From: Cudoniella acicularis | Lineage: Eukaryota > Ascomycota > Leotiomycetes > Helotiales > Helotiaceae | Reading direction: 5' to 3' | DNA length: 57,359 nucleotides | NCBI GenBank assembly: GCA_013054445.1 | Contig: JAAMPI010000166.1 | Coordinates: 1 to 57,359, forward strand | Shown: positions 16,008 through 54,979 of the stretch, piece after piece | How positions within the stretch are numbered: the first letter of the stretch is position 1 | Layout of the letters: each line of letters begins with the position of its first letter | Program-made: the position numbers and the translations under genes | Notes under the pieces: model-generated | Told to the model about the DNA's origin: nothing | What the model saw: the letters and a program-made list of their open reading frames with translations, nothing else | Database searches by the model: none

Positions 16008-16107
16008 GGTGTCGCGGTGCTGGGTGGATTACTTTGTGGCCTTCTCACTCTCGTGATGGCTTGAACCCGAGGCCTGTTTGGACTGTTTAGGCTTTCTTTA
16101 GATTTGC

Positions 16108-21235: not shown

Positions 21236-21284
21236 TTCTCACATGTATACCCGAAAATTAAGCGAGCAGCCCCTGAAACTAAGC

Positions 21285-21405
21285 ACCTACTGTAGTCGGT
21301 AGAGCTATTCCTCTACGCACTACAGTTTACAGCCAATCAAATCAACTGTAGTCGGTTTAGGAATGCCCTCACTAACTACAGTTAGTGTGGTTCCACTGTC
21401 CAACT
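21285..21405. repeat. Short direct and inverted repeat cluster (ACTGTAGTCGGT / ACTACAGT)
   Basis: ACTGTAGTCGGT occurs twice about 60 bp apart, interleaved with two copies of ACTACAGTT, its partial inverse, and with TATTCC / GGAATG arms. The arrangement can fold into a hairpin and looks like a decayed miniature inverted-repeat element. It lies about 130 bp downstream of the stop of the transcription-factor gene. Confidence 0.4.
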
Positions 21406-21530
21406 GAGCAACTATTGACTACACTGAGTTCAGTCACACGTTTTAGTCGCAAGAAGAAAATTTCAAGGCATCGTTTAACTGTTTGAAATCTAGAGTGCAG
21501 ATACCATACAACCGACCACCTTTGCATAGA

Positions 21531-23283: not shown

Positions 23284-23852
23284 CGCGTCAGAAAATCGTA
23301 GAGAAATGCTCGCGAAACTGACCACTTTGGCAAAAACCGGAATCAGCCATGGGGGTTATATATCAGAGCATTCCTATTACATAGGACTTGACCAAAATCT
23401 GTAAGCTTGCCCAGTTTTCAGCTATAGGGATGACCGCAGCAGCTGACATAAGTACTCTATCGCGAAGAGGGACCGCATTGGGAATAGGCGGAATACCAAC
23501 TAGCCAATCATATCCAGAACCAGGTTTCTAAATCTATCCACCATCCTTGACACCTGAACGACGTTCATCGGCGACCACCTACGAAGAGGCTGTCTTGTTT
23601 ACAACTATTTCTTGCAGGCACATTTTTGGCTCTCTTCGCGAGCAATAAGGCCTACATGTGAAAGTACAGCTATTGAGAGGAAGCCTTATGATTACTGTCA
23701 AGGAGACGAAACCGACAATGCATGTCGACGGGGTATAAGTAGACTGTGTCCCTCATGTCTTTTATCTTTAAGCCTCCCTAGATTTTATTACCTCTGCATC
23801 AAATTCTTTCGCACTAGATTATATCGTACAACATCACAACCTATTCGCAGCA

Positions 23853-25370
23853 ATGCACCCCTTTAACATTCTTACAACTTTAACCATCTACACGGTTTTT
23901 GCAACCCCCCTCGCAAAATGTTGCCCTGTTGCACCTCCCGATTGCGTTCTTGAAGTCGAGACCAGCAGTGGCGTTCTTAATGGATTCATCAACGCATCGG
24001 CTCCCAGTGTTCGTCAATTCCTTGGGGTCCCGTTCGCCCTTCCACCCACGGGGACCAGACGGTGGCAGCCTCCATCTAAACTAGAATCAGACAAGCCTAT
24101 CAACGCGACCAACATTGGACCTGCCTGTCCCCAGCAACCCCTTAGTGCAACACCGACGTTATACGTATATGCACCGTCTGGTGGTAATCGAACCGAGTTC
24201 TTCCCTCTGGAAAACTTCAGCGAAGACTGCCTAACACTGAACGTCTGGACACCCGAAGCCCCAAGTAAACCGTTACCCGTGTTCGTTTGGTATTTCGGTG
24301 GAGGTTTCGTGCAGGGAGGCACGAACTCACTATACTTTAACCCCCAGTCGTGGGTTCAGCGGACGCAACAGCACATCGTGGTCACTGTCAATTTCCGCTC
24401 CAACATCTTCGGCTTTCCGAATGCCAACGGCCTAACCGACCAGAACCTGGGCTTACTGGACCAGCGCCTTGCGCTTGAATGGGTTCGAGATAATATTGCC
24501 AACTTTGGCGGGGATCCATTGAAGATCGTGACCTGGGGTGAGAGTGCAGGAGCTATCGCTGCTGACTACCTCAACTTCGCATATCTAGAGGATCCCATTA
24601 TCAGCGGCATTATCTTGGAATCTAGCACCGCCCTTTTCCCTCCGAAGTTATGTCAAAGCTTCGATAAGGCCTACGCCAACTTCTCCGCTGTGGCTATAGC
24701 TTTCGGTTGTGCTACGGCACTATCTCCTGTCGATTGTCTCAAGAATGTCACATGGCAGGATATCCAAGACTCCATGGTGAAGTTAAATTTGACTTCGTCA
24801 TTCCTGCCTACTGCTGACGAGCGCCTTGTTTTCTCTAATTATGCCCAGAGGTATGAGATAGGCGCTTACTCGTCGGCCCCGGCCATCATAGGGTCAAATC
24901 AGCACGAGGCGAACGCCTTGATTCCGCCTATCCTCGGAGTAACGTTGAATGAGACACATGCGGATGAGTACACAAACGCCACCTTCCTCTGCACTGCAGC
25001 CATAGCAAGTCAACTCAGAGAAACGACGGGCCGCACGACATACAGGTACCGGTACGATGGAAACTTCCCCAACATCTCGCCTCCCGATTTTCCGGGGGCA
25101 TACCATGCCGCCGAGCTACCGCTGATATTCGGAACCGCTGGTGATTATCACGGGGCGTCTACTACGTACGAGGATAGCGTGAGCAGGAGCATGCAGGACA
25201 TGTGGTTAGAATTTGCAAAGGATCCGCTCAACGGCCTTCGGAACGCGGGCTGGTGTTTGTATGCTGATGGCAAGGCGGTGCTGATTGGAGGTACCGAGGC
25301 GCCGTTTCAAGAAATTGATATCTTGCAGCTCGATAGTGTCTGCAACATGTCACGACTCAGGATCATGTGA
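23853..25370 (+). CDS. Secreted type-B carboxylesterase/lipase (alpha/beta hydrolase)
   Basis: An intronless 505-codon frame. The signal peptide MHPFNILTTLTIYTVFATPL is followed by GVPFALPPTGTRRWQPP, the disulfide-region motif EDCLTLNVWTPE, the oxyanion hole YFGGGFVQGG and the nucleophile elbow GESAG (Ser231). Other family marks are SNQHE around the acid residue and GAYHAAELPLIFG with the catalytic His. Such enzymes hydrolyse carboxyl esters outside the cell. The last seven codons (MSRLRIM) and the stop lie inside the LTR-like repeat that begins at 25,348, so the original C-terminus has been replaced by a short transposon-derived tail. Because the conserved fold is complete by then, the protein may still be active. 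It is divergent from the Zn2Cys6 factor gene. Confidence 0.95.
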   Translation: MHPFNILTTLTIYTVFATPLAKCCPVAPPDCVLEVETSSGVLNGFINASAPSVRQFLGVPFALPPTGTRRWQPPSKLESDKPINATNIGPACPQQPLSATPTLYVYAPSGGNRTEFFPLENFSEDCLTLNVWTPEAPSKPLPVFVWYFGGGFVQGGTNSLYFNPQSWVQRTQQHIVVTVNFRSNIFGFPNANGLTDQNLGLLDQRLALEWVRDNIANFGGDPLKIVTWGESAGAIAADYLNFAYLEDPIISGIILESSTALFPPKLCQSFDKAYANFSAVAIAFGCATALSPVDCLKNVTWQDIQDSMVKLNLTSSFLPTADERLVFSNYAQRYEIGAYSSAPAIIGSNQHEANALIPPILGVTLNETHADEYTNATFLCTAAIASQLRETTGRTTYRYRYDGNFPNISPPDFPGAYHAAELPLIFGTAGDYHGASTTYEDSVSRSMQDMWLEFAKDPLNGLRNAGWCLYADGKAVLIGGTEAPFQEIDILQLDSVCNMSRLRIM

Positions 25371-25577
25371 TAGGTCACATGATGGAGTTCTGGATCCAGG
25401 ATCCACGGATCACCACCACCTATATAGCCATATAGTTTTCCTACGTTCAGAGCTTCGTGCTCAACTTCATCAATCTTAGCAAAGGTAACATTCTACCCTT
25501 TGCTTAAACGCTTCAATTGACAACTAAACCTGACGCCTCACGTGATATTGCATACCACGTGACAAGAGAACGTTACA
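25348..25577 (-). repeat. LTR-like repeat, copy 2 (internally deleted), overlapping the esterase 3' end
   Basis: Its reverse complement is collinear with 11,208-11,606: it starts TGTAACGTTCTCTTGTCACG, shares GGTTTAGTTGTCAATTGAAG, GAAGTTGAGCACG and ATATGGCTATATAGGTGG, and ends CGTGACA. It is about 170 bp shorter than copy 1, so part is deleted. It supplies the stop codon, and presumably the terminator region, of the carboxylesterase. Flanking 5-bp sequences do not match. Confidence 0.55.
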
Positions 25578-25869
25578 TTATTGGGGCAAGCTATGGCCTG
25601 GTGATGCTAAGTGCAAGGCTGGTCGCAGCGGAGGTGATACTTGGCATACTAGACGACGTGAAGCACTTTATTAGACAATACAATCGCAACATAAGTCTGT
25701 CAGGTTCTATGTTTTCTCCATACGGTGTGTGTACCATGCAGGATATGCCACAAGGCATCATGCGAGCAATCTTCGGCTAGAGGCGCATGCGAGCGGTACT
25801 TAAGAAGCGTGTGTTAGTGCCTGTTGATGCCTTGTGGCCTCACGCCAAAACAAGTGTACCCGATGTGGG
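25578..25869. other. Unassigned sequence between LTR-like copy and Dicer remnant
   Basis: About 290 bp with only short open frames. It replaces what should have been the continuation of the Dicer helicase domain, so the truncation breakpoint of Dicer lies at or near its right end. I recognise nothing in it. Confidence 0.4.
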
Positions 25870-26705
25870 GACGAACGGAAGCTCGCTCAGCTTTGACCTG
25901 ACAATGGGACTGGCTGTTAGACCTAGGATATGAGGCGACCCTACTTTCTGATCGTAGGATGGTAAAAGTAGCGCATAATTTTGTTTGCTGGATGCCCTCG
26001 CGCACAATGATGAGCTTGCGACGTCAGCGAACAGCGCCGAGGGGCGGCGCTACGGAAACAACTTGCCTTCATCGAAAATTAACAACGTCAGCTTCGACAT
26101 TTCTATGAACCCATGGCTTAAGGCATCGGCGAGAACCGCGTGTGTCGACATGACAATCTGCACGTCCTTCAATGTAGCGTCCCAGATCTGCTGTTTGCTC
26201 CACTGACCCATGTTATCGGAACCAATGAACAACCTTGTCCTGGCGGCGGGAATTTGGGAGGATATCACTTCATGCTATTGTGCACATAACGCGACTGTCG
26301 GGGCTAAGAACTAGACCAGCTATAAAGGTTCAGAAATCGTAACGTTGCTGCAAACGAAGCATACCTTCTCTGGAGGGTAGCATTCGAGTTCGGCCATGAT
26401 TCGAAGAACGGCTCTATACATCTTGATTAACACTGCCATCACTCAAGCACTGTTGGCGGGTATGAAGACTCCAGAAAGTCAATACACCAGGATGACATGT
26501 AGGCGACTTACATATACGTCTTCCCGCCTCCAATGCCCATCTGTTGATGTCAATATCGTATAATAATATGATGGAGGGTGTTAAACACTACAACGATGAT
26601 ATTTTCCTTCATGCTCTCTCCCAACATCTCCAAATGGTAGCTTCGAACACGAGCTTGCACGGCATCCCGGCCGAGTGGTCTTGAATTGCCAGCTTGGGAG
26701 GACAT
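25870..26705 (-). pseudogene. Dicer-like RNase III, N-terminal helicase fragment, inactivated
   Basis: From the ATG at 26705 the frame reads SYHLEMLGESMKENIIVV, then after an intron MGIGGGKTY (helicase motif I), AVLRIMAELECYPPEK, then LV-stop-FLAPTVALCAQ-stop-[40 protein letters not shown] and LLIFDEAHHCARGHPANKIM (DExH box, split by a GC-AG intron, 26015-26066) and finally ILGLTASPIVRSKLSEL. These are successive motifs of the Dicer N-terminal helicase; Dicers cut double-stranded RNA into small RNAs. Two TAG codons (26313-26311 and 26277-26275) replace the expected Trp and Gln, both RIP-type changes. A frameshift lies near 25,925, and everything after motif III (helicase C, PAZ-like, RNase III domains) is absent. 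It stands head-to-head with Argonaute, 528 bp away. Confidence 0.87.
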
Positions 26706-26959
26706 TCTAGCCAAGAATGCCAACTGTCATGTCATAATGTATGTCTATGATTTATCTAGGTTAGGTATCAATTTATGGAGTTTCGCTCTACCACGTTGTC
26801 CTTACTAAAGAGCTACCGTTATCCTAGGCCAGTTATCCTCCGATACTCTAAACCAGACTCTAGTCTAAAAGGGAATCCCAACTTCCATGACGTATATTGT
26901 CGGGATCTTCATAGCGGGGTAAGAATGCTTGAGAGCCTCCTCACTAGTAAACTGCGTGA

Positions 26960-27155
26960 TGGGTAGCCCACGGGTACCCGTTTGGCCGTGGTTCTCTTTT
27001 GTTTCTAGGCCTAATTCAGTACGGATTTTTTGATGGGGCTGGAAATTTTAAGTCTATTACGAAAATACAATATTTATTAAAAAAAACTTTAGGGCTTTAC
27101 CCGACGCACGGCTAGGCACGGACCAACTGGTCCGTGTACGGGTACCTATCACACA
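26960..27155. mobile_element. Possible hAT-type miniature inverted-repeat element in the Dicer-Argonaute intergenic region
   Basis: The left arm GGGTAGCCCACGGGTACCCG followed by TTTGGCCGTGG is roughly inverted on the right as CACGGCTAGGCACGGACC...CCGTGTACGGGTACC. Outward GGTACCCG ends and internal CCGTG motifs resemble fungal hAT terminal repeats. The 120-bp core is AT-rich. It sits between the divergent Dicer and Argonaute starts, in the shared promoter region, and ends about 80 bp before the Argonaute ATG. Target duplications are not evident. Confidence 0.4.
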
Positions 27156-27233
27156 GTCTACTCACTAGCACAAAAAATAAACTAGTTGGTTGGGCGTACG
27201 TCTGCAGATTCAATTTCCGTCCATTCTTGCACA

Positions 27234-30200
27234 ATGTCTGAACAGCAATTCCAACGTGGCCGCGGTCGCGGACGTGGAGAGCGGGGTTCATCGGATCGTG
27301 GCCACGTTCGCGGTCGCGGTCGCACAAGTGGAGACAGACCTCCAAGCGATCGTGGTCGTGGCTCGCAGTTTCAGGTCGCAGGCTTTGAGAGTCGGGGCGG
27401 TCGAGGTTCTCATGGCGGATTTGGACGAGGCGGCCGTGGTGGCCCTGTAGAAGTTGAGGTATTCTCGTGAGCAGCTCTATTGATCAAATGTAGCCACTGA
27501 CACCGACTGACGTATCCCAGCCACGGCCCCGGAGGGCATCCCGAGCATGATGTCCAAGTGCGAAAGATCGAGAACGAGACTGCAAGAGCCATTCAGCTCA
27601 AGAGTAGTGGTCCTCAGAAATCCATTCTCGAACCACGTTTGCCTCCCAGGCCTGGTTACGGAACACAAGGGAAGGAGGTCACTCTGTGGGCGAATTACTT
27701 TGAGATGGTAGCGCACAAGGATCTGACGTTGTTTCGCTACAGCATCGAGATTATACCGGTTGACGCTAGAGTCGGAAGAGCGCCGACTGGCAAAGGGGCG
27801 AAAAGGGTCATCGAGCTCCTTGTTGAAGAACACTTCTCTGAACACAAGAACGGTATTGCGACAGACTACAAGTCGAACCTGATTTGTAGATCAGAGCTCC
27901 CTATCGATGAAGAGGGATACATTGTGCGNTANAGATCGGAAGACGAAGACGAACCTTTATAAAATACTAAAGCCTATAAGCTACGTCTTTAAAGTATAGG
28001 CATACTCGTAGTTTCTAAACTTAGGGACTATCTAACTTCTAGCTATATAAGTACCCTATTTAGATCTAAAGACGAGATTATCTAAGCGCTTAATATCGTT
28101 ATAAGACACTATCTAAAATCCGCCTCTAATATTTTCTCTATAGGTATAAACAAGCACTTCGAACTGGCCCTAGCTGCCTTTAAGACGATAAGTCTAAGAG
28201 GAGGGCTTTAGGCTATAAGAGGATTTTTTATTAGCGTTCGGTCTACTACCTACCGTATCCTTCTTAACGTCTAGGTAAAACATATTATATGTTACGAGGA
28301 AGGCCTTCTTAGCCTATTAATATCTATATATCTAAACTATAATAACCGAAATATAGTCAGACTAGCCACTTTTCTAAAGAGAGTACGCGTCCGAGTCACC
28401 TATATTATTAAGAAGAATAGAGAAGGTCGTGAAATAGCTAGAATAAAGACTATTACGGGTCTAGTAACGCCTAAAGATAGCCACGGGTTATAGTACCCTC
28501 CTATCGTACTAAAATTTACTACTAGCGTAAAAGAGATAAAGTTTCACCTCGATAGCCCCGAAGGACAACTAAGTACGTCTTAACCGAGTATGCCTTAACA
28601 AAGTTCTACCGGAAAGAAAGGTAAGAAGGGCAAGAAGCCTATTAAGGAAGGACCTAAACCACCTAGCGGCGATTATATTAGCGTTTATGACTTCTTCTAA
28701 AAGAGTAAGGTGTCTGCCTATCCCCGTATACTTGAAATCATAGTTAACGTATCTGCTAGCCTACGGTATTACTATAACAGATCCTAGTATACCTGTTATT
28801 AATGTCGATATCCGGTAGAACCCTTCGTATCTGCCTCCGGATGTCTACGTCGTTTTACCTAGCCAACCTAGCGGTACGAAACTGACTCTAGGTCAAACAT
28901 AACAGATAATACGATTTATAGTACGCAGACCTGTCGCGAACGCCCGATCAATTGTCACTAATAGCGCTCGACTTCTTAGTATAGAACCGCCGGTAAATCC
29001 TATACTTATAAGTTAACCCTACGGTAATAGTATTAAGAGAAAACGGCTTACCTTGTCAGGCTGAGTTCGATATCGCTGTTACGCCTAAGCTTATCGCCGT
29101 CCTAGGCCGGGTCTTGACGGGACCAAATGTTCGATATAAAGACGGCAAACCTGCCTAGACTCGATCTACTAGCTAAAATATATAAGAGGTTAAATTTTCG
29201 ATAAGATCAAAGCTTTTTTCTTAGACATACCTCCTTATATCGTCGCCGAGATCGCCCGACGTATAAAGAAATAAGTAGGAGTTAGGTATTACGTTAAACG
29301 TATTCTAATAGAAACTAAAAAGACTCGGCGTCGACGTAGATAATTATACCCCTAGTCTACGTATTAGCTTAAACCCTGATAATATTAACGCGGATATTAA
29401 TACGGCTTTCTAAAGATTCGTTAGCTATTCTACTAGACCTCTACTAAAGTTGATTCTCGTTATTATACCTTATCTTGATTTATCTATTTATAACCGTATT
29501 AAGTTTATATATAATATTAAAAAAGGGACTTCTTAACGTCTATACCCTAGGCCCGAAATTTATAAAGGCTAACGACTAGTACTACGCTAATATTACGTTT
29601 AAGTTTAACCTTAAGCTCGACGGACGAAACTAGTACTTAGACAATAATAAAATCGGTATTATCGTAGAAGGGAAGACTATAGTCGTAGGCATCGACGTTA
29701 CCTACCCTACGCCTGGCTCCGTATCAAACGCGCCAAGCGTAGTAGGAATCGTGGCTTCTATAGATCAATAGCTCGGACAATGGCCGGCGGACCTCTAAAT
29801 CTAGACCGCGAGACAAGAGATAGTCTCTAGCCTCGACAGGATGTTCAAGTCACGCCTTCGTCTATAGGCGAACAAGAATAAAGGAACTTACCCCGAAAAC
29901 ATCTTAATCTATCGTAATAGTATGTCTGAAGGGCAATACGAAATCGTTCTTGACTAAGAGCTACCTTTTCTTCGACAGGCGTATAAAGAACTCTATATAC
30001 TAAGTGACTTTAAAAAGGGGCTTCCTCGTATATCTATTATTATTGTTAGTAAACGCTATAACACTCGGTTTTATCTAACTAGGAAAGAAGACGTAGACCG
30101 CTCGTCGAATCCTTAGAATAGTATTATTATCGACCGCGGTGTTACGGAAGCCCGGAATTAGGACTTCTTCTTCTAAGCTTATACTACCCTCTAAGGAACC

Positions 30201-30545
30201 GCGCGTCCGGCATATTATTATACGGTATTAGATAAGATCTTTAGAAGTCGGAAGGCGTAACCTCCTTTCTAGAACGCCGCCGATGCCCTCGAGGACTTGA
30301 CGTATAATATATACTACTTGTTCGGTCGCGCTACTAAGGCCGTTAGTATTTGCCCTGCCGCCTATTACGCGGATCTCGTTTATAAGAGGGCTAGGTGTTA
30401 TTTAAGTAAGCTATTTGATACTATTCCCGGAGCTATACCAGTAGGTAGCGTGGTGTCGGGAGTAGGTAGCGGAGCTAGACAAGTAGTAGACCCGAATAAT
30501 ATACGAATATATAAGAACGTGCGTGATACGATGTTCTATATCTAA
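27234..30545 (+). pseudogene. Argonaute (QDE-2-like), 5' part intact, remainder RIP-mutated
   Basis: Exon 1 (27234-27466) encodes an Arg-Gly-rich tail (QRGRGRGRGERGSSDRGHVR). A 54-nt intron (27467-27520) precedes the ArgoN domain (PPRPGYGTQGKEVTLWANYF). The same frame then continues into RIP-mutated DNA, where the family remains readable: KSASNIFSIGINKHFEL, RGFFISVRSTTYRILLNV, PAZ region NPSYLPPDVYVVLP, the Mid domain (NPDNINADINTAF) and PIWI with GIDVTYPTPGSVSNAPSVVG, then SICPAAYYADLVY and the C-terminal RDTMFYI. Frame changes near 28.7, 29.0 and 29.55 kb fit introns. All stops checked are TAA/TAG at former Gln or Trp codons. The first catalytic Asp survives (29694-29696), but the second is Asn: YRDG has become YRNS (29910-29921). 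Argonaute binds small RNAs and silences or cleaves targets; this copy cannot be functional as written. Confidence 0.95.
27929..27960. other. Ambiguous bases at the clean/RIP-mutated boundary
   Basis: Bases 27,929 and 27,932 are N. The next ten bases (AGATCGGAAG, 27,933-27,942) equal the start of the common Illumina adapter, although the translation (RSEDEDEP) suggests genuine coding sequence. RIP-type stops begin within about 30 bp (TAA after EPL). Adapter trimming here would lower read support and could produce the Ns or a chimeric join. Confidence 0.85.
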
Positions 30546-31179
30546 CGCGATAAAGGTAAATACTTGACTATATTAATGTTTAGATACGAGTAATCTCCGG
30601 ATTTGTTATAGTATATTCTACTTTTAAAACTCTTTTATATACTAACAAACCTAAGGCTCTCTCTTATATAGTTAATATAAATTTAAGGCTATATAAAGAT
30701 TAAATTATATCTATATAGCCGTGGCTCCTAGAAGAATGCTTCTAAGACTCCTAGGGCAACGTCGGAAGGCCGTGTAAGGGGGAAAATTCTATAGCACGTG
30801 AGCCTATAGAATAGGATCAGGCTTAAGGGAATCAGAATCTAAATCAAGGAGATTTAGGTTAATAGTCGAGGGATCTCGGAAGGCAATTGATATAATAACC
30901 GTTTAAACGACTGCCTAGGTCTCTTGATAAATAAAGAAATCTAAATTAGATATCGTGTTTGACTAATATAGCTAGGGTAAACATAAAGAACTATCTCTAA
31001 GATACGAGATATGTCCTCGGCGTTAAAGAAGCCGCGAAAAGTATGTTTTATAGGCTCTTATAGCACTCTACTTCTACGCTTCTATATATATTAGCGGTTT
31101 AACTCGAGGGCTAGACTTAGAACGGCAGATAGAATGTTTGTTATCTATATACTAAAATTAGGAGCGCCGTAACTATAAT
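30546..31179. other. RIP-mutated intergenic DNA
   Basis: This lies between the Argonaute 3' end and the end of the convergent BTB-like remnant. I could not read a coherent ancestral frame on either strand. Confidence 0.4.
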
Positions 31180-32205
31180 AGTTCTTACTATAAGAGTTTA
31201 CGTAATAGATTCGGATATCTCTAACCTTTACGGCAAGTCCTTTAACACTTATATAGATATCTTTGGCTTGTTTCCGTGGCCAGAGACCTGCCTTTTATAG
31301 ACCTCGAACAATAGAGCTATAAACTATAGTATTATAACCCTCCCTACCGGCTCGTTAACAACAGATATTATCAATTATACTTTCGTACTAGTCAAGTATT
31401 CTATAAGGCAAATCGAGTAGGTTCTTGATCGTCTCCTTACGAACTTCTTAGATGCGTTCTAGTAGGAAGGTTAGCACGTGTTCCGAACTATTACGAATCT
31501 TGACTCACTAAGGATCTTAGGCGGTATTGGCCTAGAAACCTCTATACCAGATGATATTAAGCATTTGCTATCACTATTTGTCGTAGCTTCTAGAACTATT
31601 CTAGCTGCCAAGTCCGAAAAGACTTTGTCCCTACTAAAGACCTATATAATAAACAACTAATATTTATACTCTACTTCCTTCGATGACTTTTCTTCGTCTA
31701 AAAGCCATTACGATAACTAAGGCTAAACTAACTTAACATAACTATAATAGTGGTATAAAACGGCGACGTCGAGAAGCGTCTTATAGGCTAGCGTAGTTAG
31801 GATGTTATTATACTAGTGGTGCGTAATACGGAGGAGTAAGAGAAGAGCTTCGCCGTCGTTATCACGAAAATCAACCTCCTTTACTAGCCTACTTGTTCCT
31901 TGCTTTTTATTCTTGTTAGTCGGACCTTGCTTCTCGAAATGTTAGCTCTTCTGAGTTTGATTTATAGATCTAGGCTTAATATTATCCTCTTTTCCGTCTC
32001 CTAATCTCTTATCTCTTTCCTTATATTTCGTTAGTAGATTAAAGATAATACTCTCCTAGACCTTACTAGCTAGAACTATATAGTAAGACGAAACCTGGCC
32101 TACCACGAGCTCGTCTTTATATATGACTTTGATTTATACGTTTCCGTATCTAAAACTAAACAAATTAGTGCTCTTGATTACCCTAATATCGATAGGTTTT
32201 AAGGT
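31180..32205 (-). pseudogene. BTB/POZ-like domain protein, RIP-inactivated (second of a tandem pair)
   Basis: On the minus strand the frame reads NVQIKVIYKDELVVGQVSSH, IVLASKVW, VDFRDNDGEALLLLLRITHH, LLDVAVLYHYYSYVKLV, then WLLDEEKSSKEVEYKY, VFSRDKVFSDLAARIVLEAT and SSGIEVSRPIPPKIL, with TAG/TAA at Gln or Trp positions. The order (short strand pair, S-HAIVLASK-W, D-D-EALL-LLRI-H, Y-LL-VA-L---Y--V, a Trp-rich helical segment) matches fungal BTB/POZ-fold proteins, which act as protein-protein adaptors. It is a paralogue of the adjacent gene at about 32.3-33.4 kb, in the same orientation. The plus-strand open frame at 31,478-31,660 is only its shadow. Ends are approximate. Confidence 0.6.
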
Positions 32206-32259
32206 ATTTTGCGCTTCTATATGTCGGTAGTGTAAGTCAAGAACGAGAGATAGGACACC

Positions 32260-33395
32260 TGAAAGTGTTATACGTACTTGCTACTTGATATTATAGACAC
32301 TATACGAGCTATAGTAATCCCTATCAGGAAGGACAAAGATTTCTAGGGAATCGAGTATAGATATAAGTTGATCTATACTGATATAGATATCTTCTTGTTT
32401 CTTTCGGGGCTATAAACTAGCAATTTGAAGGCCCCTAGTTAGGAAACTATAGACTAAAGCATCACAAGCCTTAGTCTTACGACGACATATTATATTATTA
32501 GCGTTCTCGTAACGATCGACGTGCGCGTAAGGAATATCAAGTAGCTTGCTAATAGTAGCTTGACGAATAGTAGAAATATTTTCTAAAGAAATATATAAGT
32601 TTTCTTAAAGTATAAAAGCGGGATCTGGTTTACTAAATTACCGATAATACTATCTGGTATAGGCTAGGAAACGAGTTCTCTAGATAAAGTAGAAATTACT
32701 CTATCCGCGTCTACTATAATTTCTTTCGTAATCTTTAATACTAAGCTCTTAAAGACTTTATTTCTCTTAAAGGTCTAGGTAATAAATAGCCAGGATTTAT
32801 GTTTAGGTGCCTTCTACTCCGTTTCTTTATTCGTAAGCTATATGGCTAGCCAAGGTCGGATAATACTAATATAGTTATACTGATCTACGAGAATAGCTAA
32901 GTTTAACAAGTAGTCGTAAGGTAGTATAGCCGGAATTTCTTTATATTACAAGTAGGCAATACGTAGAAGGATTAGAAGTACTTTACCGTCGTCTTTAGTA
33001 AAGTCGAGCTACTAAACAGGGGATGTTTATACGTCTTGTCCCTCTACGCCTTTTGTTTCTTTCGACCTAGACTAAGGCGGAAACATAAATTTCTCCTAGG
33101 CGGGGCTCGCGAGTGCTATAGCGTGGGATAACACTCTGCCTGCGTAGATCTCGCTATCGTACGTAACCTAAATTATAGAGTTAGTATCTTTTATATTATA
33201 TAGATTTCTATACTCGTGACGAAGAATAAAAACAACTTCTAGAGGCCCTTAAACTCTAGGATACGTGAAGTGATAAGATCTTACTACGATAGACACGTCG
33301 CTAGGATCGAAAGTGAAAAGAGTATTACGCTTGGTTTTCGATATCTTATTTAAGGGTAAAGTTACTTATTCTAATAGTATTATTTATACTTCGTT
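32260..33395 (-). pseudogene. BTB/POZ-like domain protein, RIP-inactivated (first of a tandem pair)
   Basis: The minus-strand frame reads VTLPLNKISKTKRNTLFTFD, then VTYDSEIYAGRVLSHAIALA, SPA-stop-EKFMFPP, LDFTKDDGKVLLILLRIAYL, EIPAILPYDYLLNLAILVDQ and YNYISIIRPWLAI, followed by a helical C-terminal part (SWLFIT, RNKVFKSLVLKITKE). This is the layout of fungal BTB/POZ adaptor proteins: strand-turn, buried S-HAIALASPAW helix, and a D-D---LL-LLRI-H helix. Stops are RIP-type. It is homologous to the gene just downstream on the same strand, so the pair arose by tandem duplication, which could itself have drawn RIP. Ends are approximate. Confidence 0.68.
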
Positions 33396-34040
33396 AATAG
33401 TAGTCGATTGATTAATACGACACACGTAGTTACGGCCTTATTAGCTACTATGTCGGAAAGTGCGTTATTGCCGAGAGGGGCTTAGTAACCCTAGCGTACC
33501 TATATAAATAGAAATACCGCCCGTAGTTATAATATGTTGGCTATCTAATATTAAGAGCTTTAAGGTTATAGAATAAAACACGAGAAGAAGGTTATAGAAG
33601 GGAGAATTAGTAAGGGGAACCGGTAGATAGAAGACAGAAGAGGACGACTAACGTAATCGAGTATTTTTTATAAATAGAGTGGTAATATATTTTCGAGTTT
33701 AATAAAACTAGAGACTTATACGTCGTCAAATGTCCGTAGGCGAACGCGGCTTGATATATAATATATAAATCCCTTAGCTTTTCTTAGCCGGTTACGAAGT
33801 TCGATTTTATATATTTTCGGAGCCTATTAGGGTTTTTATCGCGGATAAGTTAGAAATTCTATAGCTAAACCTAAGGAGAAATCCGAGGACAACCTTAAAG
33901 GGAATAAGAGTAAGGGTAAGGGAGAGGATAAGAAGAAATATAAGAGAGAGTATAAAAGCAAAATAAATAACGCTAGGAGTAAGATACGTTCGATAATACT
34001 AATTAACTTATATTTTACTATATCCTCGAGGTATTATATA
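33396..34040. other. RIP-mutated DNA, no identified gene
   Basis: Purine-rich patches near 33.87-33.96 kb (AAGGGTAAGGGAGAGGATAAG) suggest a Lys/Arg-rich coding tail on the plus strand, but I could not connect it to a family. Confidence 0.35.
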
Positions 34041-34044
34041 CCCT

Positions 34045-34556
34045 AGATAGGTTGACCCTCTATACTCCTATCTCCCTTATAAGCCTATACCCCTAGTTCG
34101 GAGTTCGAAACAAAATGACTACCCCTCGTATATCGGTATCCCGTCCTCTATTTGATCTAACGAAATCCTATAAGACAAACACCTATATCTCTTAACTTCT
34201 TTTATACCTAAGCTTCCTCCTTCCTCTTCCTGTCCGCCTCGTCTCTAGCTTTACGTAGCTTCTCCTCCGCTTCTTGTTTAGCGTAGCGAGCTTTTAGGGC
34301 ACGAATCCCTAACTCTTTATATCTACGCTTTCGCTCGTTCTCTTTATTATCGTCGTCGGGAATAGTTTCTTACGCGTAGGCTTCTTTCTTAGTTACTATA
34401 GTCTCTAACTGCTACTCTAAATCGACGATCGCGTCTTAGGATTTTTCTTAGGCGAGCTTATTCGCTCTAGTGTCGGCCTGCCGCTATGTCTAAGAGTACC
34501 TTAGCGAACAAGTTCCGAAGTCTATTACTTCGAGCGTTGATAGCTCTATCCGACAT
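34045..34556 (-). pseudogene. Small charged coiled-coil protein, RIP-inactivated
   Basis: Starting at the ATG at 34556 (MSDRAINARSNRLRNLFAKV) and continuing with one frame change, the minus strand reads DAIVDLE-stop-QLETIVTKKEAYA, then IPDDDNKENERKRRYKELGI and KQEAEEKLRKARDEADRKRK, a clear heptad-type charged helix. It ends KKLRDIGVCLIGFR and GYRYTRGSHFVSNSELGV, where Tyr probably replaces Cys by RIP. The GSHFVS-containing tail reminds me of uncharacterised fungal proteins, but I cannot assign a function. It lies between the BTB-like pair and the 2EXR gene, all on the same strand. Confidence 0.5.
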
Positions 34557-34929
34557 TACGAAGCTCCCGTCAGGACATCGACGAGCAAATAAGCGATAGG
34601 TAGGTTTCTACTATAAAAAGACAGCCTCTAAGAGAGAATAATATTATATTCGTAATAGAGTAACTTATTAGATTAATAGGATATAAAGTATTTAGATAAG
34701 CCGTAGAGTTTGTTTTAATGTTTCTAGTTGTTAGTAACCTCGATAAAAGTTAAGTAGGGTAATACTAGGTTCGTATTTCACGCGAATGCCTAAGGCCGAA
34801 AAGCAAACGCTCCGGACTCTAATTAAAATACCTACGGTAATAAACTGCCTAAGCTTATACGTATCGCCTAGTACGACATACGGTCTAAACGTGGCCTTAA
34901 GTAATTATATAGCCCTAGGATCTCTACGA

Positions 34930-35760
34930 GCATACTAGACACTTTAGTAGTACCTTAGAGAGGCACGTTACTATTTCTAAACAGGTAAACTTGTATAATC
35001 AATCTCTATTATTAGTAGTTTAACTATAAACGATCTATAAGCCTCTTTATAGGCTCCCTGATAGCCTTAAGTCCGATTAGCCCCTAGTTATAATTCTAAA
35101 AATATAGGATTAACTCTATTAATCTATATTAAACTAATAACTAGATACTATAACCTGCCTGTTTTTATCTAAGAAAAATTACTAGACACGGCGGACGAGT
35201 TCTAAAGTACCCGGAGATACCTTATAATGTTTGCGGTCTAGAAACGTCCGTTTATAAACCAAATAAAGTAGCGCCCGGTCCGTTAAAATCAGTTCTTAGA
35301 GTCCTAATAAATAGTTATAATAGTAGATCATATTCGGCGACGTTTCGTTTACCCTTATTCCCGAGATCACTACTCTGTTTACGAGGGCGGGATTAGCGAC
35401 AATCCTTAAAATTTTTAAGTTTATCTATATATCTAGCTTCGTAATAGCGAAGTAGTTATAGGCTTGATTAAGGTAAAGGGTTTTCCTTCTAGGGATACTA
35501 GGAATCTATATAGAAGTGCGTTTTAAAAGTCTCTTTACTAAAGAACGAGAGCGATGGTATATATATAGCGCTACTAGCGATAAGAAACGTATGATCCTAT
35601 TATACCACTATTTACGAAAGCAGGTTTCTCCGCTGATTAGGCGTGGTTCCGATAGAGTGAACTCCTATATCATGTCTTAGAGCTCGAAAGGTAATTTAGG
35701 AAAGAGGGTAAATATACGAGGCGAAAGTAGTAATGATATTGCCGAAGTTTACGCTTAGAT
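34930..35760 (-). pseudogene. 2EXR-domain protein, RIP-inactivated
   Basis: The minus-strand frame reads LFPKLPFEL-stop-DMI-stop-EFTLSEPRLI, the hallmark start of the fungal 2EXR domain (F--LP-ELR--IWE-AL--PR). It continues with VALYIYHRSRSLVKRLLKR, KTLYLNQAYNYFAI and LKILRIVANPALVNR, the usual order in 2EXR proteins (CRESR helix, then a strand with ---D-LYF, then LK-IA). The function of 2EXR proteins is unknown; they are often expanded in plant-associated ascomycetes. The two stops in the signature sit where Arg (CGA to TGA is not the change; TAA here implies Gln) and Trp are usual. Exact ends are uncertain. Confidence 0.65.
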
Positions 35761-36457
35761 AATGTTATGTTAAACTATGTCGCCTTTTTAAAGCCTTTAT
35801 AGGGCTTGGTCGGTGTTAGAGGTATATAAACGGCCCTAAGGCTATGATAGGAGGAAGGCGTAGCGTTATAGGGAGCCTAATCCGACAACCGATACGTTAG
35901 TGAGATTATATTTTAGACGCCTTAATTTAGGGTATAGTAGAACAGACTAATAATATTTAACAAACTATAGCTATCTAAAACGTAATATCTAAGATATGTG
36001 TTTCTAAAACAAGGTCCGGCCTACTCTAACTATACTAACTAGTGTGGTATATTATGTCTTTAGAGTCTTAAAGTCGCTAAAATCTAAAAATTTATATTTA
36101 AACATTAATATATATTCTCTATGTCCGCCTTTAAAACCTACCTCCTCGCCCCGAACCCCTTAGTATACAGAATTCCTCTACTCGAAACCGTTATAACTAC
36201 TAATTTAGAGCGTAGTAATAGCCGTTCCTTATACGGTAGCGTCCGGGTATAATCTCTATAGTCCGCGAGCGTAGAGGCTAATATAGAGGCCAGTAGAGAT
36301 ATACTGACGCGGTCCGCTATAGATAACTTAGAAGCTATATATTTAAGGATCGACTAGACGGTAGTATAACGTATTAGACCAGACGGCTATAAATAAAGAT
36401 ATTAAATCGAGATACTGTCGACTCGTACTCGTACTCCCCTTTCCTCGCTAATAGCCC
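35761..36457. other. RIP-mutated DNA, weak plus-strand coding remnant
   Basis: A plus-strand frame from about 36,121 (MSAFKTYLLAPNPLVYRIPL) to 36,390 stays open except for TAA/TAG and has normal-looking amino-acid composition (VEANIEASRDILTRSAIDNL). I cannot identify it; it may be a small gene convergent with the helicase gene. Confidence 0.3.
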
Positions 36458-39400
36458 CTAGTTTTCTATGTTCATTATACGGGTCACGCCTCTAACTGCG
36501 GTATAGTTCTGTCCGCTAACACTTGCCCTATATTTAGGGCAACGAGCTAACTCTATTAGTATCTTATACTCACTAATTATAAACTGGCTAGAAATCAGCA
36601 GTTATTAAAAGTTTTAACCTAATACGAACTTACGGGGTGTCTATTCTCGTAGTTATACTAATGGCCTAAATAAGTCGTAATACCCTAAGAACTACTAACC
36701 ATCGTAGCCTTGATCGCGTTAATCTCCTCGGCTATGACTTCCTTATACTATTGTTTCTTTATTAGGCGTATCGACTCCTTAACTATATTACGTAAGCTTT
36801 TAGTATTCTGAAATGGCTGTTTATAAACTTCTCGAGTATCTTCTAACAACTATTTAGCTATCTCTAAATAAATTACGGCCTTTTTAAGGTTTATTTTACT
36901 AGATTGACAAAAGGACTCGAATAAGCGCGCAATACTTGTATAGAAAAGTGACACTTTAACGGCTAGCTTCGGTAGATTCTCGGCCTTATATTCGTTAATA
37001 AAGCTTTTATAGCCCTAAAAGAATAGCACTACAAGTAGACTAGGGGCTTCGCCAGGGATCTTGATTAGAGTCTTAGTAGATGTTGATTTTAACGCTTAAG
37101 TAATAATAAATTTGTTATCGAGGATAAAAAATTCGGTCTTAATCTAAACTATTCGGCCACCTATAGTAACTCGACGATCACGAGCGAGAGCTAGGACGAC
37201 GTCAACGACAGCTAAATTCGTTATAAGTATATCGACGGTTAAAGTAGCGATAGCGGCCTTTCTTGCTACGTAGACTATAGCGTTATAGAGCTTTTATACT
37301 AGTTGATGTTTATTAGCCATACTATTATAGAACGTTTTTAACGCACCCTTAAGCTTCCTGGATTCCGTATCTCGTTCTTTTAGAATTCTAGTGACTTCTA
37401 AAATCTTTGCCTAAGTAAGACTTAAAGTCATATATGTTTTGGCTTGGCGGATTGACTATATAATCTCCTCTCGAGTCGTCCCGAGACTTCGCTCTAGCTC
37501 GGCAATCCGCTACTCTAACTCTCGAAGCTTATTTCTTCTAGTTGCGAGGAACCGTTTAGACATCTTATTAATGACAGCCCTGTTAATAGCCCTACTATAT
37601 CTCTATATAGCGAATTGTCTGACCGGACAGTTATAGTCAGGACAGTAAGGTATTGATTAAGCTAAAGCTCTAGACACATCTTTGAGTCCGATAAACTCCT
37701 TATACCCGTTAACTTTATAAACTTCCGATATACCTAAATGACCGTTAAGAGATTCTGCCGTAAAGAAGTGACTATAGCTAAGAATAACTACTAGTGTCTT
37801 ATTAACGTCAATTTCTCTATAGGATTTTATCTCGAGAAAGTCGACTCGAGCCTTAAGTTTATCAGAACACTAGTAGCAATACCCTTCCGCACACACTTCA
37901 CTACAAATTCCTAGGCATCGGTGGCGATAAGAGAGAGTCTTAGAGCAACGTTGGTTATATAGCAGACGATTATAAGGCGCTACGCAAGGTATTTTATACG
38001 CTCCCTTATACTCGTAAGACCAAGTATAGCTCTTTATATACGGTATATAAGATTGGTGACAGCGTAAAGTATATCGAGAGTAAGAACATCGGACCTATAC
38101 CTATTAGTATATACCTCTATTATATTAAAAGAAAATATATCTAAATGTCTTATAATTTCTTAGACATTTAAAAGGCGCCGTTATATCGTTATAAGAATAA
38201 AAAAAATTGTTTTATACCTCGTACGGAGTAAAGTAAAGCCTATAATCTATACTATTATAGTACGGGCTTCGACAGGTGTGATTATAAGTCCTAGAGTGTC
38301 TCTCGTAGATCTTAGTATATTTCTAGTGTTTGACAACGGGATTTATGTCGGCGTCCTTGCTATTATATCTTCTATAGCTACCTAGACAGCGGTGACTATA
38401 AGCTAAATTTATTCTATAGGCTATAAAACACCTAAAAGATAGATTAGCTATATCTTGAAAACATAGAACTTTAATAGTGTGTTTATAAACCGGAACTTGT
38501 TTCTAGACACGGATATTATATTTGATAATACTAGGATCTTACGCTTGGTAGTATAGAACGCTATCCTTTAAATAGTTATATAGAAGGTATATATTGTCTA
38601 ACTTTATTATATAAGGACCGTAATCCTCTCTATAGGTCTGCTTCTGACAACCGTGGTTATAAGGGGTATGAAGACGTTAACAAGGTTAAGGACATTTAAA
38701 AACGTTATATATACTATCAGAATGACATCGTACTAGACATTTATAGCCGTAGTCAATTAGACGTCGATCGTAAGAGAGTTGATATCCTCTTTTAGGGCTA
38801 AGTTTCTTAAAGTCGAGTGGCTCTAAGGCTTATATCACTATATCTATATGTCGAGGGTAATAAAGACTAAAGGCCTTCCTAACTAAATCGCTTGCCTCTA
38901 GTATACGAATTACCTACGCCTATATTAATATATTCGAATAAGTATCGGTGTTTCTAATTAGATATATACTATACTAGGCCCGGCTAAGTAAGACATTAAT
39001 ACGATTTGTCGTCTTAAGAAATCCTACTTTCTTTTCCTTATTACTTCGTACGAGTAAGATAATTATGACCTTACTTTCCTCTCCTTAAAAATTATCTACG
39101 GTCGTAATACGAAGAAGTTCGCTTAGTTTCTTCTTTTCTAAAGGCTTTCGTCTATTTCCTATGCTTGTCTGATCCTCTTCGGTAGCGGCTGTTTCTTCGT
39201 TAAATCTATCTCTTATAAGCGTTTCTTTATCCCGATTACTTAGGACAATCTTAAAATCGCCTCGTATCTTTGTTCGTAACTTCTATAACTGTCCCGTATA
39301 TAGTGTTAAGACTATAATATCACTGCTGCTATATATACCTTGCCGAACGATATAACGGACGAGAGTATGTGTTATATCTACCTCTTAGTCGTTACTTCGC

Positions 39401-42400
39401 GACTTTTAATGCCGATTAGCGTCGGGTATTTCTTTTATATTCTCGTGATCAAGCTAAAAGACATTTTTTCTTATTCCTACGACGTCGGGCAAGTTCTTTA
39501 TCGTCTCGTAGTCGATTAAGCGTAGGTAGATGGTTATCCGAATTAAGGTTAAGATCTCGGGGCGTATTCGCCGTTAAACATTTAATTAGGCTATAGGAAA
39601 TAAAGGTCTGCCTAGCTCCCCTACCGAAAGCCGTTTAAACTGGCTACGGTCGAGTTGATAAGGAGTTCCCTGTTTACTTTCAAGCGATAGCCCGTGATTA
39701 TTGATCTACGGACGAAGTTGTTAGTAATCTCTAATCTAAATAAAGTACTCGACACTAGGAAGTAAGGCCGATATTATATAGGGCTCTATAACTTCCCCGG
39801 CTTCTTCGTATATGATTACTTTATAATATACGCGTTAAAGGACGGAAATTCTCTTGGCTAGCCCTATCGTAGTGACCCCGATGACATCCGTAGTTTAGAG
39901 AACTCTTTTATCTACTTCGTCGTATATATCTTCTAGCTATTTATAAATGTTATAGCTATCTTTTACGAGCTCGAATAACTCGTCGGTTTTATTTTCGTGG
40001 ATTTCTTATACCTAGAGTTCTACTAATTAGCGCCTTTCAAGTGTCGAGAGACTATAGACATTTCGGTTCGTATTATATACGAGCTCTTAATAAGTAGTGA
40101 CCGTCTCGTCTAAAGTATTGCTTTCGCCAATAGCCTTACTTTTTACCTCTTAGTTCTAGACCTTAAAGGGTTCTTTACCTACTATCTTAAACCCGTCTTC
40201 GTCGAATCGGGAAAATTGTAAGAAGATACGTAGATATCTCCGCTATAGATAAGTCTTAAGATTGGCCTAGTCAGGTCTTTTTTACGTAGTATATAGCGAG
40301 CCTAGGACTATAGTAATAACCCGCTCTCTATTCTCGAGCTGCTCGTATGATTTAGCAACTAAATAGCGTTCGGATTTTGTTTTCGCCTCGCCTTAGGACA
40401 CGATACGTAGGTTCTTCCCTTCTAGAATCCTCGACTTACTTTGGCCGTCAATTCGAATAATCTTCTTAATACTAATCTTAATAAGATACTCTAGGAACTG
40501 ATCTAAAGCGTGATTTATATAGTATCTATATAAGGTTAATCACTAACTTTATAAAACGAAACTGTGAGCTTATACGACAACTACGGGTCCTAAATCTGCC
40601 TTCTCCTTACAAGCTAAGAGAACACTTATTAGTTAGACATTAAGGTACGATTTCCCCGTTCCCGGTAGGCCTTATATAAAAGCAAACTCGCGAGTTAAGG
40701 CCGCTATAAGTGCTAGACACTGCCTACGGTCAAGCGATGTTCGTGCCTCGAGCTTATCAATACTAGTAATATCATCGATTAAGACTCTAGGGCTAAAAGA
40801 GAGCCGATCACTATCCGCTTTAAGTATAGAATCTAATAGGAAGAGAAAACTCTGACCCCGGGCGTAGAGTGATAGAAGAATATCTAGAGGCTTTATAGAT
40901 ATAGTATAGCGGTCTGGTAGAATCTATTAACGGAATAGTAACCGGCCGAGGCGATATATATTTTAAAGGTTCTTTAAGATAGGAAGGAATATAGTAAGTA
41001 GAATCCCTAGAAACTCAATCAAAGCCCCTCTTATATCCTGGTAGCTTAATTAAATCAGTAGTTCTAGGTCTCCTTAATTACGGGTAGCAAGTTTAGTAAC
41101 AATAGTTAAGATATGATCGTAAGAACTAAGACTATAAGATGCCTTAGGATCGGTATATTTCTTACTGACTATAAGAAATAAGAGGGAACTTTTGTTATTG
41201 ATAAGTAAGACAAAGTATAGTAAAGAACCTTCTTCGAGGCGTTTCGAGTCTTCCTACCACTTGCGCCTATTAGGTATAGACTTCTTTCGAAGAGTATAGA
41301 GTTGGTTAAACGACACGTGAGCTTCGACACCTCGGTTTCGGTTAAAGGAAACGTAGCTAATATAGGCCTTAGTATAAGGGTACGCTCGTATATCTCCGAG
41401 GCTTAGCTTCGAGTTGTTAAGTAGAGTCGGGTTATTAGTGATAGAGTTTATTAACCCCTTAAGAGCCTCTTTTAACTCCCCGAAGATGTTATGACGAAGC
41501 AGGCGGAATTGTGTGTCGAGATGACGTGCTATAGGGTCGTTAAGGAAATATAGTTGATCAAGATCGGTACTAGGTAGAAATTCTAGATAATCGCTTCGAA
41601 TCTTATTTTCTATAGGAAGAATCTTGATCTTTATGATATCCCTATTGTTATTATCGTGATGTCCTCTTAAGATGATGATTTGTCGAGGATATGTCGACTT
41701 GACTATAGTAGTTAAGACACCGTCGACATTCGGCGCCTCTACGTCCGTAAGAAGGCTAGTCGCACGTGCTATGATAGCCCGAATCTCACTACTCTGATTG
41801 ATGATTACCTAGAACGCCGTAGACGTATCGTCAATGCCTATAGCTTCTATAAGGTTCTATAATGAGTTGATAAGATCTAGAAGTTCTTCGTAGAAGGCAG
41901 CTCGTTGTTCCCTCTTTAGAATCTCTCGTAGCGAAATTAGTATTATAATAAGTGTCGTTTCTACCGAGGCTCTCGAGACATTAGATTCGTAGTATACGTC
42001 GGCCAAGTTTATATAAAGACGCTAAAAAAAAGGAACTACTCTAGTCCTATTACTACTACTGATAAAGTTATACAAGCCTCTAACGAAGGTGTCTATAGAT
42101 AAACAGTCTAGTATAGCTAGATGTGTGATTACTAGAAGAAAGGGTTATACAAGTATAATAAAGGTAGCGCCTCTATTAGTATACGACACTATGCTTAGGA
42201 GTGCCTTAATATGTTTACGGCCGTAGTTCTCCTCTATATTAAGGTCTCGCGGGAGTATCTGTTTCTAGTCTCGATCTCCTTCGTTTAAAATAGTAAGAGC
42301 ACTATTCTATAAGAGCTTAATCGTTCTGGTGTCGTTTGGCGTTAAAGGTCTCTTGACAAGCCTCTTCTACGAATTATAGTCCTCCCTCTCCCTTTGTTGC

Positions 42401-42770
42401 TCCGGTGTATCTGCCAATCTTCTAGTTGGCTATTTGTTACGGTTCGATATATTATAAGAATAGGTATAGTTATCGCTATATCGATAATACTCTCCTTACT
42501 CGATAAATCGACATAGTCGGGGTCCGCCCCGCTAGATATTGCCGCCTCTGCCTCCTCGATCGCCTCTATTCTATCTATCCCCTCTATTGCCTCTATTCCC
42601 TCTACTATCTCCTCCTCTCTATCCTCTGCTAGTACCCTGTCTATCTTCCCCTCTTCTACTAAACCTACCTCCTAAATTCGAGCCTCGCTATCTCTCCCCT
42701 AGCGTTACTATTATTATAAGTACTTCGGTTTTCTAACTAAAGTCGGTTAAAGCCTTATAAAGAAATAAGT
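36458..42770 (-). pseudogene. NFX1-type zinc finger helicase (ZNFX1-like), RIP-inactivated
   Basis: A gene of about 6.3 kb on the minus strand, readable almost throughout. Order: Gly/Arg-rich N-terminus with a CCCH-type finger (about 42.5 kb; LCRF..G..C..G..C..SH with Cys changed to Tyr), a long helical region (FLNDPIARHLDTQFRLLRHN), SF1 helicase motif I at about 40,644-40,672 (GLPGTGKSY), motif II IIYEEAGEV (39.8 kb), motif III-like region QLRPQINN, motif V/VI LLRITTVDNFQGEESKVIII and RINVLLSRAQ (with TAG), NFX1-type Cys-rich fingers (38.7-38.0 kb), a coiled coil (MSKRFLATRRNKLRELE) and a C-terminal RZ-type finger (GHxYNxENRHP...LARCPKY). ZNFX1 proteins act with Argonautes in small-RNA pathways in animals, and fission yeast Hrr1 is a related RNAi helicase. 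Stops and Cys-to-Tyr changes are RIP-type, so this copy is dead. Confidence 0.9.
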
Positions 42771-48280: not shown

Positions 48281-48533
48281 GTGCTAACGGTTAGGGCGTT
48301 ACACTTCGCTAATGTTAGTAAACTTAGTAGCTAGTAACATAAAAACATAAATAAAGTAATCAATCAACTAAAATTTCTTATAGATACTAACTTTTAGTTA
48401 AGGGTATAGCTCGATCGAAGATACGACGTATAGTCTAAGATAAAATAAAGGGTTTTGCTTAGACGTAGATATAGATACTATAATATCTTTTCTAATCACT
48501 TTAGATATTTTAAATCATTTCCTACTATTAAAT

Positions 48534-54975: not shown

Positions 54976-54979
54976 GGCT

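What the first reader, a model, noticed from the sequence alone, without database searches (positions are those of the whole stretch)
25870..42770. RNA-silencing gene island: Dicer and Argonaute head-to-head, ZNFX1-like helicase nearby, all inactivated
Within 17 kb lie a Dicer-like fragment (-), an Argonaute gene (+) starting 528 bp away and divergent, and a large NFX1/ZNFX1-type helicase. ZNFX1 proteins work with Argonautes in animals and a related helicase, Hrr1, is in the fission yeast RNAi complex (established). Clustering of these genes is not the usual arrangement in fungi as far as I know. A co-inherited RNAi module, possibly accessory or mobile, that was later duplicated and then silenced by RIP would be a notable case of one genome defence disabling another. 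Physical clustering is seen; functional linkage is inferred.
Basis: partly seen in the sequence, partly recalled or inferred. Interest (0 to 1): 0.87.

Follow-up and report, generated by a model that had tools for sequence, protein, structure and literature searches.

The report
Duplicated Dicer–Argonaute pair, mostly RIP-silenced
In this fungus a back-to-back pair of RNA-silencing genes, a Dicer and an Argonaute, was copied and the younger copies were mutated to death by another genome defence, and the stretch read here appears to be two such copies stitched together wrongly by the genome assembly.

Summary
The Dicer fragment, Argonaute and NFX1-type helicase are present, but the window is very probably an assembly chimera. 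Window and contig C846 carry the same head-to-head Dicer–Argonaute pair with mirror-image RIP states; they swap within window 27821-27966, where C846 has 25 Ns and the window two. Three pairs result. Locus A is un-RIPed: truncated Dicer, Argonaute open in the exons read (window left plus C846 right). Locus B is RIPed: full-length Dicer and Argonaute, helicase 6 kb beyond (C846 left plus window right). Locus C is heavily RIPed (C703 plus C488). B and C are recent duplicates (19 transversions in 2588 sites); A is older (66 in 2585). Both genes belong to lineages distinct from the genome's other intact DCL-2 and Argonaute. In Capronia epimyces the two hits lie two locus tags apart. The helicase link is weaker: it sits in a repeat mosaic and locus C's homology stops before it, yet Exophiala xenobiotica has an Argonaute and such a helicase four tags apart. 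RIP of duplicated RNAi genes is supported; one island with everything inactivated is not.

The parts
1..27928 (.). Part of the contig that belongs to locus A (un-RIPed); its true continuation is probably C846 from about 3650 down to 1
   Evidence: mirror-image RIP states and Ns at the swap
25861..26678 (-). Dicer (DCL-2-type) 5' fragment of locus A, truncated, un-RIPed, with stops and frame changes
   Evidence: DNA match 25868-26872 to C846, 74%
26945..27162 (.). dispersed repeat inserted between the two genes in locus A; absent from C846, which has only about 45 bases between the aligned blocks
   Evidence: 67 of the 73 matches lie on this part; 10 fetched loci match at 87-92% DNA identity
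27234..27928 (+). Argonaute N-terminal part of locus A, un-RIPed; an in-frame stop between 27234 and 27501 is read as lying in an intron
27821..27966 (.). collapsed stretch and joint: C846 has 25 Ns here, window Ns at 27929 and 27932; window phase changes between 27926 and 27953
   Evidence: N count
27933..30542 (+). Argonaute remainder of locus B, RIPed, many stops (Piwi match 29571-30401)
30556..34492 (.). flank shared by locus B and locus C (C488); no Pfam match
34493..35854 (.). repeat that begins exactly where the C488 homology ends; 79% to C1401; contains a 2EXR match on the minus strand (35461-35712)
36461..42711 (-). NFX1/ZNFX1-type helicase, RIPed pseudogene, nearly full length
48331..57359 (.). 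RIPed segment duplicated on C1450 at 94%; holds NAD_binding_4 (48576-49379, +) and cytochrome P450 (52836-53747, +) relics

Best explanation
This is a second RNAi gene pair of a helotialean fungus: a DCL-2-type Dicer and an Argonaute transcribed divergently from a shared intergenic stretch of about half a kilobase, both from lineages other than the genome's other intact Argonaute (C134) and its intact DCL-2 (C288). The pair was duplicated, first into A and B/C and later into B and C. RIP, most likely set off by the recent B/C duplication, mutated both genes in B and in C. The older A copy escaped RIP and keeps an apparently working Argonaute, but lost most of its Dicer to truncation. The window is none of these loci: it joins the left of A to the right of B, and C846 is the reciprocal product. 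Shown: the two genes in divergent order in A and B, the direction and context of the mutations, the mirror-image joint. Inferred: that C703 and C488 are the two sides of one locus C, the order of events, that the shared promoter region co-regulated a Dicer that makes and an Argonaute that uses small RNAs against viruses or transposons, and that Argonaute A now depends on the genome's other Dicers. The helicase is more likely a neighbour in a RIPed repeat mosaic than a third member, but a real link is not excluded.
For: Head-to-head order in the window and in C846. Swap of RIP state at one place: left, 90 changes in the RIP sense against 22 reverse in 655 sites; right, 373 against 70 in 2585; CpA hit 54 of 84 and 234 of 348. 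All called bases of the two contigs agree from 27804 to 27970; at 11 of the 18 N sites of C846 up to 27926 the window has C or G and RIPed C488 has T or A; at 5 of 5 N sites from 27953 on the window has the C488 base. Transversions 19 of 2588 (B-C), 66 of 2585 (A-B), 67 of 2586 (A-C). Trees: B and C with one Leptodontidium Argonaute (99), A outside that group with Acephala and another Leptodontidium protein; pair Dicers with Capronia, Scytalidium and Pseudogymnoascus (97), C288 elsewhere. Locus C: about 260-base repeat in direct orientation facing both genes, CTTAT at both outer sides. In a relative, Phialocephala subalpina, 4 Argonautes and 4 Dicers against medians of 2 and 2, and a CpA-to-TpA signature (PMC5148876, passages).
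Against: No reads or long-range data were available, so the joint is judged from contigs alone. At 7 of the 18 left N sites the simple C/T or G/A pattern is not seen. A and B differ by only about 8% outside RIP, inside the range in which RIP acts in Neurospora (recalled), so A's escape is unexplained. No reverse transcriptase domain was found in the parts of C703 and C488 scanned. C703 and C488 could be two separate loci. Trees are quick ones on chosen rows with some long branches. In Capronia orientation and spacing were not seen. Whether the pair's lineage is an extra one or the main DCL-2 of other orders is open, since Aspergillus and Penicillium proteins named Dicer-like protein 2 fall with it.
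Confidence: 0.72

Rival explanations
1. The three genes form one module (Dicer, Argonaute, NFX1 helicase) inherited or moved as a unit, and the helicase of locus B is its third member.
For: Exophiala xenobiotica: Argonaute LTR47_011252 / LTR92_010753 and helicase LTR47_011248 / LTR92_010749, longest contig 149823 for both. C1100: RNase III relic and helicase relic 1.5 kb apart. The window helicase is of another lineage than the intact C910 one (33%), as the pair's genes are.
Against: Locus C homology stops at 34492, 2 kb before the helicase's near end, and a dispersed repeat starts at 34493. Segments 35120-35704 and 48234-49813 are neighbours in five places on four other contigs but 12.5 kb apart around the helicase here. 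Broken helicase copies on C1610, C1449, C1548 and C1144 are on no contig of the Argonaute or Dicer match lists. The C1100 relic matches only RNase III stretches and is weak. The Exophiala helicase is in another subclade than the window's.
Confidence: 0.35
2. The swap is real: a reciprocal crossover or translocation between loci A and B within the Argonaute gene, correctly assembled.
For: Both reciprocal products are present as contigs.
Against: 25 Ns in 147 bases of C846, and two in the window, exactly at the swap, 17% as against about 19-20% difference between the copies elsewhere: both versions were in the reads. A real crossover needs no Ns.
Confidence: 0.06
3. A and B are not two loci but alleles of two nuclei or strains in the sequenced material, one of them RIPed.
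For: Ns at differing sites show that two versions were read; they differ by about 8% outside RIP.
Against: Leptodontidium also has both lineages (two proteins); A's Dicer is truncated with an unrelated flank while B's is full length. Ploidy and purity were not tested.
Confidence: 0.08
4. The AT-rich decay is ordinary drift of dead heterochromatin, not RIP.
For: Locus C also has many changes outside CpA: CpC 120 of 341, CpG 130 of 297, CpT 102 of 350.
Against: Locus B: 67% of CpA against 12-15% of other C sites; locus C: 313 of 348 CpA. Same signature reported in Phialocephala subalpina, which has RID-like genes (PMC5148876, passages).
Confidence: 0.04
5. The head-to-head order arose once, in this lineage, and the Capronia tag neighbours are a coincidence.
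For: Only one other named species showed the linkage, and only the best 120 of 2927 Argonaute hits could be seen.
Against: The Capronia proteins fall in the same lineages as the pair's genes, and they are two tags apart on a 5-Mb contig.
Confidence: 0.2

Closest known systems
Dicer-like 2 and QDE-2-type Argonaute silencing of Pezizomycotina (quelling, antiviral dcl2/ago2 of Cryphonectria)
   Same: Same protein families; both intact Argonautes match QDE-2 best in PDB; pair Dicer is DCL-2-like, not DCL-1-like
   Different: Here Dicer and Argonaute are neighbours, divergent, of a lineage beside the genome's other DCL-2 and Argonaute, and duplicated
Truncated Dicer and Argonaute genes of Aspergillus nidulans (Hammond and others 2008; paper not held, content recalled)
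   Same: Loss of one Dicer and one Argonaute of a larger set by truncation
   Different: Here by RIP in two copies and truncation of a Dicer in the third; linkage in A. nidulans not checked
RNAi gene expansion in Phialocephala subalpina (PMC5148876, passages read)
   Same: More Argonaute, Dicer and RdRP genes than usual, RIP signature in repeats
   Different: No linkage or RIP of RNAi genes is stated in the passages read
ZNFX1 / Hrr1 helicases of RNA silencing
   Same: AAA_11/AAA_12 core; several relatives are named NFX1-type zinc finger-containing protein 1
   Different: ZNFX1 domain only below cut-off here (13.6 bits against 27); role with Argonaute untested

Membership tests
Argonaute (eukaryotic) | ArgoN, L1, L2 and Piwi domains in order | tested here: met
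   window scan (ArgoN, L1, Piwi over cut-off; L2 below it); PAZ only E 0.048
Argonaute (eukaryotic) | catalytic residues of the slicer | tested here: inconclusive
   Locus A Piwi exon shows GIDVTHP, RQEMVSDL, YRDGVSEG, YYADL; motif positions recalled; most fungal Argonautes have DD[DEK] (PMC4290597, passages); activity not tested
Dicer-like 2 | helicase, Dicer_dimer and two RNase III domains | tested here: met
   on C846: Dicer_dimer 48.3 bits, alignments to DCL-2 proteins over 5027-9106; gene dead, 38 stops over 6545-9133. The window itself holds only the 5' part
Dicer-like 2 | groups with DCL-2, not DCL-1 | tested here: met
   with own C1099 DCL-1 as outgroup
RIP | C to T on either strand, mainly at CpA, in duplicated DNA | tested here: met
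   B and C duplicated
RIP | RID (or DIM-2) methyltransferase and a sexual cycle | not tested
   not searched in this genome
ZNFX1/Hrr1-type RNAi helicase | helicase core of the family | tested here: met
   AAA_12 89.1 bits; 183 relatives
ZNFX1/Hrr1-type RNAi helicase | works with Argonaute or RdRP | not testable with these tools
   -
Starship-type mobile element | captain tyrosine recombinase at one end | tested here: inconclusive
   none in six frames of 25.6-54.5 kb; 1-25.6 and 54.5-57.4 kb not scanned, element ends unknown, RIP may hide it

The most novel reading that the evidence does not exclude
Pezizomycotina carry a patchily kept RNAi gene cluster, a divergently transcribed DCL-2-type Dicer and Argonaute sometimes joined by an NFX1-type helicase, that multiplies in some lineages (here, with linked genes also in Capronia and Exophiala) and is destroyed by RIP when it duplicates, so that the copy number of one genome defence is policed by another.
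Probability: 0.33. Interest if true: 0.8.

Novelty: new variant of a known kind. Interest (0 to 1): 0.58.

Why it matters
A paired, divergently transcribed Dicer–Argonaute unit that duplicates would help to explain the extra RNAi genes counted in relatives such as Phialocephala, and gives a natural case of RIP acting on silencing genes. It also shows how collapsed repeat reads can produce a contig that looks like one dead gene island while one of the genes is open elsewhere.

Tried and rejected
Looked for another copy of the whole 30.6-57.4 kb flank: 30556-38500 and 47500-57359 gave pieces only, the longest being 9 kb at 94% on C1450; 38.5-47.5 kb was searched as protein, not as DNA. Looked for RdRP genes beside the pair: four contigs (C1534, C1108, C651, C1601), none among the contigs of the Argonaute or Dicer matches. 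Looked for the pair in viral contigs: no relatives. Scanned parts of the locus C flanks for transposon domains: none at E 0.1 (4 of 6 frames of C488 1-2800, 6 frames of C703 4000-6717). The 104 bases after Argonaute A seemed to mark an inversion, but occur in four places and decide nothing. In the helicase tree the row own_C1610 was misframed (end branch 6.92) and is not used. In the Argonaute tree Pochonia, C956 and C1616 are long branches and are not used. Nine paper searches listed no paper that by title or abstract describes a linked Dicer–Argonaute pair in fungi; most listed papers were not opened, and the library holds open-licence papers only. In the listing the Starship papers show no occurrence of Argonaute or Dicer. 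Passages, not whole papers, were seen of PMC5148876, PMC7763443, PMC5450132, PMC12663654 and PMC4290597.
Full report
What is in the window. The left 27.8 kb has ordinary composition apart from the dispersed repeat near 27.0 kb; from about 27.8 kb to the end the DNA is AT-rich with a strong RIP signature. Six-frame Pfam scans with stops as X found a Dicer-type DEAD helicase match on the minus strand at 26.07-26.32 kb, just under its cut-off, an Argonaute on the plus strand, and an AAA_11/AAA_12 helicase with a sub-threshold ZNFX1 match on the minus strand. Homologues extend these to 26678-25861 (Dicer 5' part), 27234-30542 (Argonaute) and 42711-36461 (helicase).

The contig is a chimera. Contig C846 of the same genome carries the same two genes in the same head-to-head order. 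Its RIP state is the mirror image of the window's. Left of the joint the window is un-RIPed and C846 RIPed (90 changes in that sense against 22 reverse, 655 sites); right of it the window is RIPed and C846 is not (373 against 70, 2585 sites). The swap lies in window 27821-27966. All called bases of the two contigs agree from 27804 to 27970, C846 has 25 Ns in the 147 bases concerned, and the window's phase turns between 27926 and 27953, with its own Ns at 27929 and 27932. At 11 of the 18 N sites up to 27926 the window has C or G where the RIPed copy C488 has T or A; at the other seven this pattern is not seen; at all five N sites from 27953 on the window has the C488 base. The density of Ns (17%) is close to the difference of the two copies elsewhere (19-20%). 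The natural reading is that reads of two copies were collapsed here and the contigs left on the wrong partners. A true crossover would leave no Ns.

Three loci. Locus A is window 1-27928 continued by C846 from about 3650 down to 1. Its Dicer is a 5' fragment; its Argonaute is open in the exons read (introns inferred), the 487-residue Piwi exon being 90% identical to Acephala macrosclerotiorum. Locus B is C846 from 10735 down to about 3700, continued by window 27933-57359; both genes are near full length and full of stops. Locus C is inferred from C703 (Dicer) and C488 (Argonaute): each carries a copy of a ~260-base repeat (84% alike) where the partner gene would begin, the copies are in direct orientation across the gap, and by eye CTTAT stands at both outer sides; I read this as one retroelement inserted between the genes. 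No reverse transcriptase domain was found in the parts scanned. Further Dicer relics lie on C1269 and C1067, 84-92% identical in DNA to C846 over the Dicer end and downstream sequence, and Argonaute relics of this type on C1809 and C678.

Order of events. Transversions, which RIP does not make, number 19 of 2588 between B and C, 66 of 2585 between A and B, and 67 of 2586 between A and C in the Argonaute. B and C separated recently, A earlier. The Argonaute tree agrees: B and C group with one Leptodontidium protein (SH-aLRT 99), A lies outside that group with Acephala and another Leptodontidium protein. In B 234 of 348 CpA sites are changed and 12-15% of other C sites; in C 313 of 348 CpA. So the recent duplicates were RIPed in both members and the older copy escaped. 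Why it escaped at about 92% identity is not explained.

Lineage. The pair's Dicer lies with Capronia, Scytalidium and Pseudogymnoascus Dicers (97) and then Aspergillus, Penicillium and Monascus Dicers, some named dcl2-1 or Dicer-like protein 2 (100), and not with C288, the genome's other DCL-2. The pair's Argonaute is apart from the other intact one on C134. The trees are quick ones: 34 of the 120 Argonaute hits listed (2927 found), 33 of 106 Dicer hits, 28 of the 120 helicase hits listed (183 found). Whether this lineage is an extra one or the main one in other orders is open; against QDE-2 the two Argonautes score alike.

The helicase. It is nearly full length and 72% identical over 1430 residues to a Botryotinia convoluta protein, and only 33% identical to the intact helicase on C910. 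Locus C shares locus B's sequence only up to 34492, and a dispersed repeat begins at the next base. Two repeat segments that are neighbours in five places on four other contigs lie 12.5 kb apart around the helicase. This argues for a mosaic neighbourhood. For a link: Exophiala xenobiotica has an Argonaute and a helicase of this family four tags apart, in two tag series, and C1100 has relics of an RNase III domain and of this helicase 1.5 kb apart, the former too weak to call a Dicer with confidence. Four other contigs with broken copies of this helicase (C1610, C1449, C1548, C1144) are in neither the Argonaute nor the Dicer match list.

Background. Phialocephala subalpina, a root endophyte whose kinship to this fungus I recall, has 4 Argonautes, 4 Dicers and 5 RdRPs (medians 2, 2, 3) and a CpA-to-TpA signature in repeats (PMC5148876, passages read). 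Nine paper searches listed no linked fungal Dicer–Argonaute pair by title or abstract (see Tried and rejected); that covers open-licence papers and listings only.

Verdict. The pair and its RIP are real; the single dead island is an assembly product; the three-gene module is open. What remains of interest is a divergently transcribed Dicer–Argonaute unit that duplicates and is RIPed.

Noticed in passing
C1616 3080-4442, C956 42654-43566, C452 9286-10247, C1138 78950-79649, C1008 7968-8920: Five further Piwi relics of ordinary composition, mostly broken by frame changes or stops, about 22-41% identical to the Argonautes compared: remains of a more divergent Argonaute group.
   Followed up: partly
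C1601 16871-17092 and 20291-21986: A stretch similar to the window helicase (E 2e-6) lies about 3 kb from an RdRP gene; kind of helicase not determined.
   Followed up: no
window 44913-45012, 48190-48302, 52188-52313, 57046-57131: G-rich 13-base tandem repeat arrays at four places of the RIPed part, one in the opposite orientation; similar stretches on many other contigs.
   Followed up: no
window 17432-18932 (-): Two overlapping open frames that look like a glycoside hydrolase family 7 cellulase split by a frame change or intron (judged by eye, no search made).
   Followed up: no
window 51566-51669; C846 949-1052; C1450 25961-26064; C1449 35323-35426: A 104-base sequence that follows Argonaute A occurs four times in the genome, 75-77% alike.
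   Followed up: partly
C1067, C1269, C846 9790-10735: Sequence downstream of the Dicer is shared at about 91-92% by three contigs, and C1067 also has pieces of the window flank (35.1-36.0 and 47.5-48.5 kb): the RIPed block is a segmentally repeated mosaic.
   Followed up: partly
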